Assembly (NCBI GenBank): GCA_030065755.1
Contig: JASJDA010000021.1
Coordinates: 1-63,067, forward strand
DNA: 63,067 nucleotides
From: Prochloraceae cyanobacterium
GTDB taxonomy: Bacteria > Cyanobacteriota > Cyanobacteriia > Cyanobacteriales > JASJDA01
Direction: 5' to 3'
A model generated the notes under the pieces. It saw only the letters and a program-made list of their open reading frames with translations. It searched no databases and was not told where the DNA came from. The position numbers were made by a program, and so were the translations under genes. Of the stretch, positions 49,750 through 62,985 are shown piece after piece (the first letter of the stretch is position 1; each line of letters begins with the position of its first letter).

Positions 49750-51130
49750 TGAGTCCTTGAATTTCGCACTGAGTGACCTCTCCTACGCTGACCTGTCGGT
49801 ACAGTCGTAGGCTTCCAACCCTCACGAATTGGCATTTCTGGATCGGCACTTATCTAGATACTTTATCCCCGACAGTACGCCATTACCAGACAGTTTCCAT
49901 TCCCCGCAGTCCACGGGTACTACAGATTCTATTCCTCGATTTAAAATTACTCTTCCACTGGCATGGTCTCTACTTGTTGTATAATCACATTCACTACAAA
50001 TATGAACTCGTTCAGAGAGTTCTTTTTTGCCCGTGTGCGCTCCGCACTCAGGACAAATTTGACTAGTGTATTTGTGGTCAACAGTAGCAAAATATTTGCC
50101 TCGCTTCCAACAAACCCAAGACAGCAGTTGTCGAAACTGCCCGAAGCCACCGTCAAGCATTTGTTTCCTCAAAAAACCTTTAGCGCAGAAGCGAAAATCG
50201 ATATCTTCAGCAAATATCATGTCAGCTTGGTCGCAAAGCAAATGGCTAGGCGCGAAAGTGAAAGTTTTTTCGAGTATTAGATATTTGATGGTGAAGACGA
50301 GCGACTTTAAGCTGCGCTTTTTCCCAATTCTTAGACCGTTTATTTTTACGAGATGCTCTTCGTTGCAGCACTTTAAGCCTACTTTGAAGTTCAAGAAAAA
50401 ACTTGGCGGGTTCAATTCGGAAATTGTCGCTAGTTACCAAAAACGACTCCAGCCCAATGTCAACTCCTATCCCTCGACCCAATGGCAATGGCTCGGGAAC
50501 TTTGACATCGCACTGAATAGTTACTACTGCATACCAAATGGTTCCTCTGGCTCTAGCTACAATCCTTACTCCTTTGACTTTGAAACCTTCAGGGATCGAT
50601 CGATGGCAATTGATTGTCAATTTTCCAATCTTTGGAAGTTTGACTTGATTACCAGAGATTGGATTTTCCTTGAATTGAGGAAACAAAAAAGATTGATATC
50701 TGCCAAATTTCTTATAGCGAGGAAATCCGTAACCTCTTGCTTTAAAAGCTTCCCAAGTATTATGAAGTCTTTTGACTACATCTTGAGTTACTTGAGAATG
50801 AACAGCTTTATACCAAGGATTATCTTTTTTCCACTGGGTAAGTTGTCGTTTCTGCTCCAAATAATCAGGAAAAGGCGTATCGGGGGACATAATATATTCC
50901 CGATTCAAAGAGCAAGAAAACAAACTACATTTTCTCGAATTAATCCAATCTTTCATGTTGCGCAAACAATGATTGTAAAGTCGTCTGCACGTTTCCAACC
51001 ATTCAAGCATCAAAGCTTGTTGGTCAGCAGTTGGATAAATTCGATACGTGTAATTCATGGTAAGCATACTCCTCTGTTACCATAATTTTTAGCGCAATTC
51101 ATCTCGACGCTAAAATCAAAGATTTATAGC
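49750..51130 (-). mobile_element. IS200/IS605-type insertion (tnpB only) between gmd and fcl
   Basis: The tnpB pseudogene is bracketed by hairpins. On the left is CCTACG..CGTAGG (about 49782-49812). On the right is TTTTAGCG..CGCTAAAA (about 51089-51118). No tnpA is present. The element splits what is normally an adjacent gmd-fcl pair. Exact ends cannot be fixed without an empty-site comparison. Confidence 0.65.
49822..51067 (-). pseudogene. tnpB: TnpB, split by a frameshift
   Basis: The N-terminal frame (50246-51067) begins YTYRIYPTADQQALMLEWLE and carries the RuvC-I aspartate in GVDIGLESFLVTSD. It stops after NTRKNFHFRA. The other frame resumes FAPSHLLCDQADMIFAEDID, with the RuvC-II glutamate, then has the zinc finger CPECGAHTGKK..CSECDY and the RuvC-III aspartate in SRDHASGRV. 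One extra base near 50252-50257 restores the join. All catalytic residues survive, so the inactivation looks recent. The ORF starts at 51067 or at MNYTYRIYP a few codons later. Confidence 0.88.
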
Positions 51131-54651: not shown

Positions 54652-54821
54652 AATTTAAGAACTAAATTTTGAGAAAATCACGTTTTCTTTAGTTTAATCA
54701 TTGAAAAATACTAAGCACTAACAAGTATTTATCCTCAACTGTTTTAAGGATAGTTTTTACGAGCTTATTTCTTTTTGTTCGAGATCGGAGTTTACGAAAT
54801 AACCAAATAACTAGTTCAAAG

Positions 54822-54999
54822 GCAAAAGGCAAGAGGCAAAAGGCAAAAGTCACCCGTTGAAAAGGGGACTTTACCCCTCCTCAACCAGTTTCCCCTTATA
54901 GAAGGGGAGGTCTTAAACCAAGGTATTAGTAAGTAGTGAACGAACTAAACTTTTGCCTCTTGCCTATTGCCTTTTGCCTCGGAGGCAATAGCCGACGAT
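54822..54999. repeat. Composite inverted STRR cassette E (GGCAAAA type)
   Basis: GGCAAAAGGCAAGAGGCAAA heptamers (54822-54850) are mirrored by TTTTGCCTCTTGCCTATTGC (about 54952-54979). The core has GGGG..CCCC and the hairpin CCCCTTATAGAAGGGG followed by AGGTCTTAAACCAAGG (54892-54923). The tail is CGGAGGC..GCCGACGATAAAAAG. The spacer 54652-55099 holds nothing else that I recognise. Confidence 0.75.
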
Positions 55000-55099: not shown

Positions 55100-56200
55100 A
55101 TGAAACTCACTTTTTTTCAAGGCTTGACTTCAAAACTAAAACATATATTAACATTTGCTTTATGTTTTTGTTTGAGCGTCTTATTTTCATTTGGCTTTTT
55201 GAACGAACCCGCTCGAGCACAAGCTTTCTTTGAAAGTCCGAAGCAGTTTGTGGTCAAAACATCTTGTATTGCTACCAGATCGATTAGAAAAGGAACTGAC
55301 CCTGTTGAATTAACGGTTGATGAGATTTATACTGCATTAGGAGAAAATAAAATTCCTGGCGGTACTCACGCTTATATAGAGGTCGAAGGGACTAGAAAGT
55401 GGGTAGCTCTTTCCTGCGGTCAATATGAAGGAGAAGTAGCTACTACTCCTCCCACAGAGGAACCAAAGGATTTTCTGCCTTTCTTCGATGAAATTGACAA
55501 TCCAATCCCCCTAAGAGTTGGAGGAATTGCTGACATTACACCCGTTCCTCCTCAACTAAATAAATTCGATCGAGCTGTTGTCAAAGCCTGTGGCGAACCA
55601 GGAAAAAGAGTAAGTCGGCGCGAATTTGTGGATCTAATGAACGATAATCCTGAGGTTCTCGAACAGGTTAAAGAATTTGTTGGCGATCGAGTATTTGCTA
55701 ATCGTCCTAGCAGTACCTCTTCTTCTGATTTCCTACAAGATCTAACCGATGCTTGGTTTAGCAATGCAGAAGGCTTTAATCATATCTTCTGCGGCGAACC
55801 CGTACCAGGAGGTAAAATTGGCGGTTTGCACTTCTGGGGTCGTTATCTAGAACTTCAAGAAGCGAGTTTAGCTGGTCGTCTACCTGGTAACACGTCTAGA
55901 GAAGAGGTAGTGCCTGGTACAATCTATACTCTAGGTGTTGAAATGAGTGTAGATGGTGGCATTGCCTCATCTAAAATTAAAGGATACGGTCTTACTTTAT
56001 CTGCAGAAGATATCCTCAAATTTGTCACCAAAGCTTTCCGCGATAACCCGACAAGAAGCAGCAGAAGCAGTGCTTGTCTCCTTGATGTAGAAGATGAGGG
56101 GAAAGAATTTAAAGCAGTATTTGTCAGAAGAGCGAGTGGTATACGCACTTTTTATCCTGATGCTACTCCTAGAAGCAACACTTCACAGTGTCAGGTTTAA
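55100..56200 (+). CDS. Secreted EndoU/XendoU-like endoribonuclease
   Basis: A 366-residue exported protein with a signal peptide (LTFALCFCLSVLFSFGFL, cleaved near ARAQA). The C-terminal half matches the XendoU fold: GFNHIFCGE with H228 and E233, then KIGGLHFWGRYLELQEA with H244, and SSKIKGYG with K292/K294. In Xenopus XendoU the catalytic H162, E167, H178 and K224 have nearly the same spacing; the Glu preceding H162 is Asn here. The end VFVRRASGIRTFYPDA is also family-like. It should cut RNA, perhaps at uridines, outside the cytoplasm. An upstream start at 55058 is possible, but GGAG at 55085 and the signal peptide favour 55100. Confidence 0.82.
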   Translation: MKLTFFQGLTSKLKHILTFALCFCLSVLFSFGFLNEPARAQAFFESPKQFVVKTSCIATRSIRKGTDPVELTVDEIYTALGENKIPGGTHAYIEVEGTRKWVALSCGQYEGEVATTPPTEEPKDFLPFFDEIDNPIPLRVGGIADITPVPPQLNKFDRAVVKACGEPGKRVSRREFVDLMNDNPEVLEQVKEFVGDRVFANRPSSTSSSDFLQDLTDAWFSNAEGFNHIFCGEPVPGGKIGGLHFWGRYLELQEASLAGRLPGNTSREEVVPGTIYTLGVEMSVDGGIASSKIKGYGLTLSAEDILKFVTKAFRDNPTRSSRSSACLLDVEDEGKEFKAVFVRRASGIRTFYPDATPRSNTSQCQV

Positions 56201-59842: not shown

Positions 59843-59866
59843 CTAAGAACAAGCTGTCGCTATGGT
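59843..59866 (-). repeat. 24-base direct repeat, tnpB 3' copy
   Basis: On the plus strand this reads CTAAGAACAAGCTGTCGCTA and onward. It matches 61240-61263 at 21 of 24 positions and encodes the tail TIATACS-stop of the tnpB. Confidence 0.7.
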
Positions 59867-61147
59867 CTTAGATTCAAAAGATCGAATCCTTTTAGGTTGT
59901 GTCAAGCAACCACTAATACGTTGAATCATTTTCAGATCCTTCGCTTTACTTAACCCTAGATGTTTTCTTAATATATTTAGCGCACCGTTGGCATCAGCAT
60001 TAATTAACTGACCGCTTTTGGTTTTGTATAAACCTCTTTTAATGCGTTTGCCGCTAAACACATATTTTTTTGTATCGTTAGGATTATAATTGGGAATGTT
60101 ATCTGCATCTAATGCGCTAGCTTTAGAGGTATAAGATTCTTCGATTTCAATGTATTCAAGTCCTACTCTCTCACAGAGGCTTTCCAGCTTGAGTCGAAAA
60201 GTAGATATTGGAATTTGGACAAAGTTTTGATTGTTGCGAGTACCCAGATTGGCATCTTGTTTGATACCAGGGTTGTAGCCCACAACCACTTTGCTAATTC
60301 CCGTATTTAAACAACGATTGACAATAAATCTAACTGATTTATTTAGATAATCTTGAATTTGATTAGATCTTTTATCGAGTAGAGAAGCTTGTTGGTTAGT
60401 CGTCCCTTCAATACCTTGAATATCTTTAATCGATTGCAATTTTGCATTACGTTTGTTATACCATTGGTTTAATGTTTTTAACCGTTTTCCATCAATAATA
60501 AACGATTCTCCATTGGTGGCAACGCAGGTAGCAAGATTGTTAAGACCAACATCGATACCGATTACATCAGATCCTACGGCCAGCTTTTCTTCTACTTGCT
60601 CGTAAACATAAGCTACATCAAAAAACCTCGCTTTATATTTGGGTAAAATTCTAATCTCTTTAACCTGCTTATTTCTAATTTTTTCAGGAATTGTTAACGT
60701 CACAGAGCCAAAGCTTCGTTTAAAAGGTCTAGACATTGGAATTGAAAATTGCCACTCCTTGTCCTTTAGCTTGTCCCAATCTCGCGCTCGTATTGGGATA
60801 ATAAGCGCAAAAAAACCATCTTTTGGCAAATATCCAGGCAATCTCACTTTGGCGTTATACTGTCCAGCATTTTTCAACTTGATTAAATTGAAAAACCCAC
60901 GAAAAGCTCGATCGACAACCTTTAAAGTTTGCTGTCCGATATCCGTTGGTAGCAATATATAGTTTTCGTTTGATTTGCTGTAATGATAAGAACTTTCATA
61001 ACGAAGAAACTTCCTTTCGGCAAAAAAGTACTGACGAACATTATAAAGACCTACGTTGAATAAATTCTTTGAAAGTCTGCACAATGCTTTTAACGCATCA
61101 TTTTCATCCCGATTTAGTTTTAATCGATTCGTCAGTGTTAACAGCAT
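59843..61147 (-). CDS. tnpB: TnpB-family RNA-guided nuclease, apparently intact
   Basis: A 434-residue protein with the TnpB layout: N-terminal wedge/REC (KLNRDENDALKALCRLSKNL), RuvC-I aspartate in VIGIDVGLNNLATCV, RuvC-II glutamate in YIEIEESYTSKASALD, and RuvC-III aspartate in LINADANGALNILRK. The Cys4 zinc finger expected between II and III is absent: that region (YVFSGKRIKRGLYKTKSGQ) has no cysteines. It resembles IS607-linked TnpB rather than the other tnpB types here. No tnpA lies next to it. The ORF reads to 61198, but MLLTLTNRLKLN at 61147 is the natural start. Its stop is 33 bases before the ABC subunit start. Confidence 0.85.
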   Translation of the reverse strand: MLLTLTNRLKLNRDENDALKALCRLSKNLFNVGLYNVRQYFFAERKFLRYESSYHYSKSNENYILLPTDIGQQTLKVVDRAFRGFFNLIKLKNAGQYNAKVRLPGYLPKDGFFALIIPIRARDWDKLKDKEWQFSIPMSRPFKRSFGSVTLTIPEKIRNKQVKEIRILPKYKARFFDVAYVYEQVEEKLAVGSDVIGIDVGLNNLATCVATNGESFIIDGKRLKTLNQWYNKRNAKLQSIKDIQGIEGTTNQQASLLDKRSNQIQDYLNKSVRFIVNRCLNTGISKVVVGYNPGIKQDANLGTRNNQNFVQIPISTFRLKLESLCERVGLEYIEIEESYTSKASALDADNIPNYNPNDTKKYVFSGKRIKRGLYKTKSGQLINADANGALNILRKHLGLSKAKDLKMIQRISGCLTQPKRIRSFESKTIATACS

Positions 61148-61239
61148 AAAAATAAATCCGTCATATATAAATGATATAACGAAATTAAAACTTGTCAACT
61201 ATCAGTTACAAGTAATATAAGGGCTTCACCTCAATTCCC

Positions 61240-61711: not shown

Positions 61712-61981
61712 TTGGGAATCAGTTATACGACTCCATGGAGGATGTGGAAGAAAGCAGAACTCGATGCCTATCAACTACCCAGTGGAACTATCATTGTAAA
61801 AGATGATGAGGAGTCAGTAACAAAATTAGCTGAAACTGTTTGCATATGTGCGAGAGTATCAAGTTCTGAGAACAAAGACAACTTAAAAAGACAGTCACCT
61901 CGATTGTATGGTTTGAGGAGAGCTAAAAGAAAAACAGAGAAGATTATCGCCGAACTTGAAAGTAGTAAGGTCGAAGATTAA
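61712..61981 (+). pseudogene. tnpA: IS607-type serine recombinase TnpA, internally deleted
   Basis: Eighty-nine codons remain of a protein normally near 190-200. The MerR-like DNA-binding part is present (LGISYTTPWRMWKKAELDAY, QLPSGTIIVKDD), followed by the serine recombinase start VCICARVSSSENKDNLKRQ, with the catalytic serine in the SSS stretch. Then it jumps directly to the normal C-terminal tail RLYGLRRAKRKTEKIIAEL. The roughly 100 residues of catalytic core between are gone while the frame is kept. The first 10 or so residues are also missing. The stop overlaps the tnpB start by one base (TAATG), as in IS607. Confidence 0.82.
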
Positions 61982-62985
61982 TGAAATTAGTAGAGAGACA
62001 TATTATCAAAAGAGGTCATAGGTTTTTTGATGAGTGTGACTCTCTATGCTTTAGCTCTAAAAATCTCTATAATTTAGCTAATTATAATATTCGTCAAGGC
62101 TTTATTTATGCTAAGACTTACTCTAATTACAATTTACTAGACAAAGCTCTAAAGCAGACACAAGAATATAAAGCTTTACCTGCTAAAGTCGCTCAACAAG
62201 TATTAAGAGTTCTAGAAAGAAACTGGTCTAGTTTCTTTGCTGCACTATCAGAATGGAAGAAAATGCCAGATAAATTTACAGGTCGTCCCAAGCTACCTAA
62301 ATACAAGGATAAACAAAAAGGACGAAATATTCTCGTTTATACTATTCAGGCAGTTAGCCAAGTCTGGTTGAAAAAAGGAATAGTTGCCCCATCTAAAACT
62401 AACATCAAAATCCCTACCAAAATAGCTCCTGAATCTATCAAAGAAGTCAGAATAGTACCCCATACTGATTGTTATATTATTGAGGTAATTTATGAAAAGC
62501 TAATTAGTAGCATCAAAGACAATGAACTTATAGCTAGTATAGATCTGGGATTGAACAACTTAATAGCGCTAACTTCAAATCGAGCAGGTTTTCAACCTAT
62601 TTTGGTTAACGGGCGACCTTTAAAAAGTATCAATCAATTTTATAACAAGAGAAAAGCTAGTCTGCAAGAACAATTACCGCGCTTTACTTATAGCTCTAAA
62701 CGAATACTTCGACTAACTCGTCGTCGCAATCAAAAGATTAACAATTACTTACATCATGCCAGTAATCAGATTGTTAACACTTTGCGCGATAACTCAATTG
62801 GAACGTTGCTAATCGGTCAAAATAAACACCAAAAACAATCGATTAATATGGGCAAGACTAACAATCAAAACTTTGTCAATATTTCCCATTCTAAACTGAT
62901 TGCAAAATTGACTTATAAGTGTGAATTAGTATCCAACCCTACGGAAACAAATCCGAGCATGGCTAAAAGCTGGTGTTATGGATAA
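61981..62985 (+). pseudogene. tnpB: IS607-type TnpB, 3' truncated
   Basis: The open frame has 334 codons; the first 315 or so are TnpB. It starts MKLVERHIIKRGHRFFDECD, has YNLANYNIRQGF, the RuvC-I aspartate in SIDLGLNNLIALTSN and FYNKRKASLQ, and reaches NNQNFVNISHSKLIAKL. It then breaks near 62930, before the RuvC-II glutamate and RuvC-III aspartate. The last codons are out-of-frame group II intron DNA. It belongs to the same subgroup as the tnpB at 59843, to judge from shared NLYN/NIRQ and GLNNL..FYNKR patterns. It is inactive as a nuclease. Confidence 0.85.

What the first reader, a model, noticed from the sequence alone, without database searches (positions are those of the whole stretch)
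55100..56200. Secreted XendoU-type ribonuclease with the animal-like catalytic spacing
H228 and H244 are 16 residues apart and E233 follows H228 by 5, exactly as H162, H178 and E167 in Xenopus XendoU; K292/K294 sits close to the expected K224 position. Bacterial EndoU domains are mostly toxin tips, but this is a free-standing exported protein. The long N-terminal region (about residues 35-145) is unfamiliar and no immunity gene is adjacent.
Basis: partly seen in the sequence, partly recalled or inferred. Interest (0 to 1): 0.6.

Follow-up and report, generated by a model that had tools for sequence, protein, structure and literature searches.

The report
Exported SH3-EndoU ribonuclease of a cyanobacterium
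A cyanobacterial gene encodes an exported RNA-cutting enzyme whose catalytic core is a common bacterial relative of animal EndoU, joined to a small, unnamed SH3-like head that turns up on several unrelated exported nucleases, so it looks like an RNA scavenger rather than a toxin.

Summary
An intact 366-residue ORF (window 55100-56200, +) has a signal peptide and H228/E233/H244 at the stated positions. It is an EndoU: Pfam EndoU_bacteria E=4e-29, AlphaFold pLDDT 90.7, and EndoU structures are the top PDB fold matches. Three parts of the interpretation change. (1) It is not XendoU-type: PF09412 scores only 16.7 bits (cut-off 32.3). The 16-residue His-His spacing is general EndoU (15 in human, 17 in a bacterial toxin, 15-19 among its own relatives). 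K294, not K292, is the conserved lysine. (2) Free-standing is the rule in this order: 80 of 293 genomes have EndoU_bacteria and 83 of 84 hits lie in ORFs under 500 aa. (3) The 'unfamiliar' N-terminus is an SH3-like module (residues 49-110) that no Pfam model covers, followed by a conserved lobe (124-203). In the order sample the module occurs 30 times, always on nucleases: EndoU, RNase T2 and one EEP nuclease. The SH3-EndoU form also occurs in Thiothrix, Hyphomicrobium, Aquabacterium and Desulfosediminicola. No immunity gene is conserved nearby. Best reading: an exported His-His-Lys ribonuclease degrading extracellular RNA, probably for nutrient recovery. The fold and active site are well supported; activity and role are inferred.

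The parts
55100..56200 (+). SH3-EndoU gene, 366 aa plus stop
   Evidence: ORF listing and translation; Pfam PF14436 E=4.4e-29; only EndoU_bacteria gene in the genome
55100..55219 (+). Likely Sec signal peptide, residues 1-40, cleavage after ARA
   Evidence: Sequence inspection; model shows helix 6-32; relatives carry the same AxA-Q site
55244..55429 (+). SH3-like N-terminal module, residues 49-110 (C56 and C106 conserved in relatives), no Pfam model
   Evidence: Beta-strand fold in model; Foldseek matches to SH3 and ALE-1/lysostaphin cell-wall-targeting domains; weak HMM hit to SH3 repeats of amidase 4epc; no SH3 Pfam match in 17 members; shared with RNase T2 and EEP nucleases
55469..55708 (+). 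Conserved N-terminal lobe, residues 124-203 (PFFD..NP..DITP..CG)
   Evidence: Invariant F128, F129, D130, D145, C164, G168; not aligned with XendoU in profile-profile comparison
55709..56170 (+). EndoU catalytic domain, residues 204-357
   Evidence: Pfam stretch 223-355; profile-profile match to PF09412-type proteins from residue 207 on; core model pLDDT 96 with EndoU PDB matches
55781..55783 (+). H228, first catalytic histidine
   Evidence: 61 of 61 relatives; aligned with XendoU-type histidine
55796..55798 (+). E233, active-site glutamate, +5 from H228
   Evidence: 57 of 61 relatives, spacing 5 in all 61; equivalent to human E290
55829..55831 (+). H244, second catalytic histidine
   Evidence: 61 of 61 relatives
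55979..55981 (+). K294, catalytic lysine (rather than K292)
   Evidence: 60 of 61 relatives; K292 is not conserved
56147..56155 (+). T350-F-Y352, probable base-recognition T/Y pair
   Evidence: T350 in 61 and Y352 in 60 of 61 relatives; aligned with IRSFFP of XendoU-type proteins

Best explanation
The protein is exported by the Sec route and folds as an N-terminal SH3-like module, a family-specific lobe and a C-terminal EndoU catalytic domain. H228 and H244 act as acid/base pair, K294 stabilises the transition state, and the T350/Y352 strand helps choose the base. This gives RNase A-like cleavage of RNA leaving 2',3'-cyclic phosphate, probably with preference for uridine. The SH3-like module is proposed to hold the enzyme to cell wall, exopolysaccharide or RNA outside the cytoplasm. 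The protein works as a periplasmic or extracellular RNA-degrading enzyme that helps recover phosphate, nitrogen or nucleosides, or clears extracellular RNA. The producer's own RNA is spared because the enzyme is outside the cytoplasm and probably needs disulphides, so no immunity gene is required. Shown: ORF, family, predicted fold, conserved active site, SH3-like head, distribution, lack of a conserved neighbour. Inferred: secretion (signal peptide by eye), cleavage chemistry, base preference, disulphides, anchoring role, nutritional role.
For: EndoU_bacteria E=4.4e-29; confident models, pLDDT 90.7 and 96.0, whose top PDB matches are EndoU enzymes; active-site residues conserved in 61 relatives. 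The same SH3-like module sits at the N-terminus of RNase T2 proteins and one EEP nuclease, with no non-nuclease host seen among 30 hits in the order, the classified hits of the phylum sample and 20 genomes reached through relatives. No conserved immunity-like neighbour in 17 plus 23 loci. C164 and C231 are invariant and C326 and C364 nearly so, as expected of an exported disulphide protein. An EndoU-like protein, All2314, was found in the Anabaena exoproteome (PMC10957091). Extracellular nuclease NucH of cyanobacteria is phosphate-regulated (PMC1906773), and 11 of 23 genes of a sister EndoU clade carry Pho-box-like triple repeats versus about 1% of shuffles.
Against: No activity data. The window gene itself has no Pho-box-like site: best score 17 of 24, near the shuffle mean of its clade. 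EndoU and RNase T2 do not significantly exclude each other across genomes (6 of 33 T2 genomes also have EndoU, about 9 expected), so they are not shown to be substitutes. The function of the SH3-like head is unknown. I did not verify that All2314 belongs to this branch. Only 27% of the order's genomes carry the family, so it is not essential.
Confidence: 0.6

Rival explanations
1. It is an exported antimicrobial or anti-predator ribonuclease: a diffusible or surface-bound effector that kills competitors or grazers, with the producer protected by compartment rather than by an immunity gene.
For: Characterised bacterial EndoU_bacteria proteins are mostly antibacterial toxins (PMC9990079, PMC9086364). 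SH3 domains target cell walls in the bacteriolytic enzymes ALE-1 and lysostaphin, and these are among the Foldseek matches of the model. One toxin-tip-like EndoU ORF (3780 aa) exists in the order.
Against: No adjacent or conserved immunity gene; no pre-toxin, HINT, RHS or delivery domain; conserved full-length sequence across phyla rather than a diversifying tip; the head is shared with degradative RNase T2.
Confidence: 0.22
2. It is an animal-type XendoU acquired from a eukaryote, using the same metal-dependent RNA-processing mechanism.
For: His/Glu/His spacing identical to XendoU; XendoU 2c1w is the top Foldseek match of the full model; weak PF09412 match, E=0.0043; local HMM alignment with human and frog EndoU from the helix before the first histidine.
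Against: PF09412 score 16.7 bits against a cut-off of 32.3. With the core model XendoU is no longer among the listed matches. Profile-profile alignment with PF09412 proteins covers the catalytic part only, not the N-terminal lobe. True PF09412 genes occur separately in cyanobacteria. The window nests in a bacterial clade (no eukaryotes were in that tree).
Confidence: 0.03
3. It is a catalytically inactive or moonlighting exported RNA-binding protein.
For: No activity test exists for this branch in the papers found.
Against: Active-site residues are among the most conserved positions of the family; the frame is intact.
Confidence: 0.05

Closest known systems
EndoU_bacteria (Pfam PF14436), free-standing exported cyanobacterial members such as those of Nostoc and Calothrix
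   Same: Catalytic domain, active-site residues, N-terminal FFD...CG lobe, free-standing architecture
   Different: Most carry no SH3-like head, or another N-terminal domain (SEGFESG type)
SH3-EndoU proteins of Thiothrix, Candidatus Venteria, Hyphomicrobium, Aquabacterium, Cellvibrio and Desulfosediminicola
   Same: Same full architecture; the window nests with them and three other cyanobacterial sequences in a clade of 20 rows with 99% support
   Different: 43-53% identity over the best segment; these non-cyanobacterial rows form their own sub-clade
Cyanobacterial RNase T2 (PF00445) with the same N-terminal module
   Same: Signal peptide plus the same SH3-like module
   Different: Unrelated catalytic fold
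XendoU / eukaryotic EndoU (PF09412; PDB 2c1w, 9ftw)
   Same: Homologous catalytic domain, His/Glu/His/Lys site and T/Y strand
   Different: Different N-terminal region; Ca2+ or Mn2+ dependent (PMC11275989); the window protein is below the family cut-off
EndoU tips of CDI and related polymorphic toxins (e.g. CdiA-CT STECO31)
   Same: EndoU catalytic domain of PF14436; His-His-Lys triad (PMC9086364)
   Different: Those are C-terminal tips of large delivery proteins with an adjacent immunity gene; neither feature is present here

Membership tests
EndoU_bacteria (PF14436) | Score above the curated Pfam cut-off | tested here: met
   101.9 bits against 25.3, model positions 2-129 of 129
EndoU_bacteria (PF14436) | Two catalytic histidines and a lysine | tested here: met
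   H228, H244 in 61/61 and K294 in 60/61 relatives
EndoU_bacteria (PF14436) | EndoU fold | tested here: met
   Predicted structure; top PDB matches XendoU and Nsp15
EndoU superfamily enzymes | Endoribonuclease activity leaving 2',3'-cyclic phosphate | not testable with these tools
   Needs a biochemical assay
XendoU (PF09412) | Score above the curated Pfam cut-off | tested here: not met
   16.7 bits against 32.3; none in the whole genome at E<=0.001
XendoU (PF09412) | XendoU-type N-terminal extension (Ca2+ sensing in human EndoU) | tested here: not met
   Profile-profile alignment starts at residue 207; the lobe 124-203 is not aligned. The full-model Foldseek match was longer (224 columns) but the core model did not reproduce it
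XendoU (PF09412) | Divalent-metal dependence | not testable with these tools
   Needs an assay
Polymorphic / CDI toxin | Toxin domain at the C-terminus of a large delivery protein | tested here: not met
   366 aa, no delivery domain
Polymorphic / CDI toxin | Adjacent immunity gene | tested here: not met
   Neighbours are GT and SSB; no conserved immunity-like neighbour in relatives
Bacterial SH3 (SH3b) domains | SH3 beta-barrel fold | tested here: met
   Foldseek matches to SH3 domains, TM normalised by target about 0.6-0.7 for many; E-values are weak (0.03-0.1) because the module is a small part of the query
Bacterial SH3 (SH3b) domains | Match to a curated SH3 sequence family | tested here: not met
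   No SH3 Pfam family for any of 17 members

The most novel reading that the evidence does not exclude
An undescribed SH3-like module (CxA...N...W...CG) serves as a common head for at least three unrelated exported nuclease folds (EndoU, RNase T2, EEP). It places them on a shared extracellular target (cell wall, exopolysaccharide or RNA), and the SH3-EndoU cassette has moved between cyanobacteria and proteobacteria.
Probability: 0.45. Interest if true: 0.5.

Novelty: new variant of a known kind. Interest (0 to 1): 0.36.

Why it matters
EndoU in bacteria is discussed in the papers read here almost only as a weapon. This gene belongs to a common, exported, free-standing branch with no sign of a toxin-immunity arrangement, so EndoU may also be an ordinary extracellular RNA-degrading enzyme, as RNase T2 is. 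The SH3-like head, shared by otherwise unrelated exported nucleases and covered by no Pfam model, is a concrete handle for asking how such enzymes are held at the cell surface. Cyanobacteria also carry real XendoU genes, which gives a bacterial system for comparing the two EndoU types.

Tried and rejected
Animal-type XendoU: rejected on the Pfam cut-off and profile alignment. Homology of the N-terminal lobe to the XendoU N-terminal extension: suggested by the 224-column Foldseek match of the full model but not reproduced with the core model or by profile alignment, so dropped. Toxin-immunity pair: no candidate immunity gene; a small membrane protein next to some EndoU genes lies beside ilvC and is probably synteny. 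EndoU as a strict replacement for RNase T2: the own genome lacks RNase T2 but the overlap across genomes (6 seen, about 9 expected) is no significant exclusion. Pho-box regulation of the window gene: no site found. A genome-contig search with the single protein found nothing; with the alignment it worked. Two key EndoU papers (Michalska 2018, Mushegian 2020) are not held. First Pfam/PDB calls used a coordinate off by one base and failed.

Full report
OBSERVATION. The ORF starting at ATG 55100 and ending at 56200 encodes 366 residues. Pfam EndoU_bacteria (PF14436) matches residues 223-355 at E=4.4e-29, 101.9 bits against a cut-off of 25.3. XendoU (PF09412) matches weakly, 16.7 bits against 32.3. 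NCBIfam has no match. It is the only PF14436 gene in the 8.46 Mb genome.

ACTIVE SITE. In 61 aligned sequences of the family H228, H244 and T350 are invariant, E233 is kept in 57, K294 in 60 and Y352 in 60. K292 varies freely, so K294 is the catalytic lysine candidate. H-to-E spacing is 5 in all. H-to-H spacing is 16 in 47, 15 in 10, 17 in 3 and 19 in 1. Published residue numbers give 16 in XendoU (H162, H178; PMC3482391), 15 in human EndoU (H285, H300; PMC11275989) and 17 in the bacterial toxin CdiA-CT STECO31 (H187, H204; PMC9086364). The spacing is therefore general EndoU and not an animal mark.

STRUCTURE. The full model has mean pLDDT 90.7. XendoU 2c1w is its best PDB match (E=1.7e-6, 224 columns), followed by coronaviral Nsp15. 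The core model (residues 121-366, pLDDT 96) again matches EndoU enzymes best, here Nsp15, but XendoU is not among the listed matches. Profile-profile comparison with real PF09412 proteins of cyanobacteria aligns the catalytic part only, from residue 207 to the T/Y strand. The lobe at residues 124-203 is thus family-specific as far as these tests go.

N-TERMINAL MODULE. Residues 49-110 form a beta module that Foldseek places with SH3 domains, including cell-wall-targeting domains of ALE-1 and lysostaphin; sequence profiles give weak hits to the SH3 repeats of amidase 4epc. None of 17 module sequences matches an SH3 Pfam family. In 286 genomes of the order the module occurs 30 times: 14 intact EndoU proteins, 2 broken or split EndoU genes, 13 RNase T2 proteins and 1 EEP-type nuclease. 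In a phylum sample the new hits are four RNase T2 (one by Pfam, the others by their HGLWP and HEWxKHGTC motifs), one EndoU from another order, and one broken ORF that I could not classify. In 20 genomes reached through relatives it occurs once each, in ORFs of the size of the EndoU ORFs.

DISTRIBUTION AND TREE. 80 of 293 genomes of the order have PF14436. Of 84 hits, 83 lie in ORFs under 500 aa and one in a 3780-aa ORF. Full SH3-EndoU proteins also occur in Thiothrix, Candidatus Venteria, Hyphomicrobium, Aquabacterium, Cellvibrio and Desulfosediminicola. In the tree the window sits in a 20-row SH3-EndoU clade (99% SH-aLRT), inside which 16 non-cyanobacterial rows form one sub-clade (100%); a transfer between cyanobacteria and proteobacteria is likely but its direction is not resolved.

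NEIGHBOURHOOD. In the window the gene is flanked by a divergent glycosyltransferase and a convergent single-strand-binding protein. No neighbour is shared across the 17 loci of the first set or the 23 SH3-EndoU loci apart from local synteny (ilvC and an amidase, named from sequence by eye; an AmpG-like transporter in four Thiothrix-group loci). No sigma-70 or terminator signal exceeds chance.

FUNCTION. An EndoU-like protein, All2314, was detected in the Anabaena exoproteome (PMC10957091); whether it belongs to this branch was not checked. In a sister clade of Nostoc-type genes with another N-terminal domain, 11 of 23 upstream regions hold triple repeats such as TTTAACTTataTTTAATCAaaaTTTAATAG, against about 1% of shuffles; these fit the cyanobacterial Pho-box layout (PMC1906773). 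The sequences are related, so these are not independent events, and the window gene lacks such a site. Together with the shared head on RNase T2, exported location and absence of immunity genes, this favours RNA scavenging over warfare. Activity, base preference and the role of the head remain untested.

VERDICT. A real, well-formed exported EndoU ribonuclease of the bacterial family, with an SH3-like head. The enzyme is a known kind; the head and its sharing among unrelated exported nucleases are the part I found no description of in the papers held.

Noticed in passing
L190, L191, L192, L193: Bona fide XendoU family (PF09412) genes occur in 4 of 386 cyanobacterial genomes; L190 and L191 end in a Lamin Tail Domain (L190 just under the Pfam cut-off) and show no signal peptide by eye; L192 is broken.
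   Followed up: partly
L099, L101, L105-L108, L110, L113-L115, L131, upstream of the EndoU gene: Pho-box-like triple 8-bp repeats upstream of a sister EndoU clade, suggesting phosphate control.
   Followed up: partly
L009, L014, L018 and other Nostoc-type loci: Sister EndoU proteins carry a different N-terminal domain (SEGFESG type, weak F5/8 type C match), so the N-terminal part is exchanged.
   Followed up: no
L044, L060, L129, L136: EndoU genes or their module appear split over two frames in some genomes, possibly pseudogenes or assembly errors.
   Followed up: no
49822-51067: An IS605 OrfB (TnpB-like) gene is split into two overlapping reading frames, probably a frameshifted copy; further OrfB genes lie at 59843-61198 and 61981-62985.
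   Followed up: no
54818-54980: Short 7-bp tandem repeats AAAGGCA and, about 100 bases on, roughly their inverse TTGCCTC upstream of the EndoU gene.
   Followed up: no
G165:C100:14456-14824 (outside the window): The single toxin-tip-like EndoU in the order sample, in a 3780-aa ORF.
   Followed up: no
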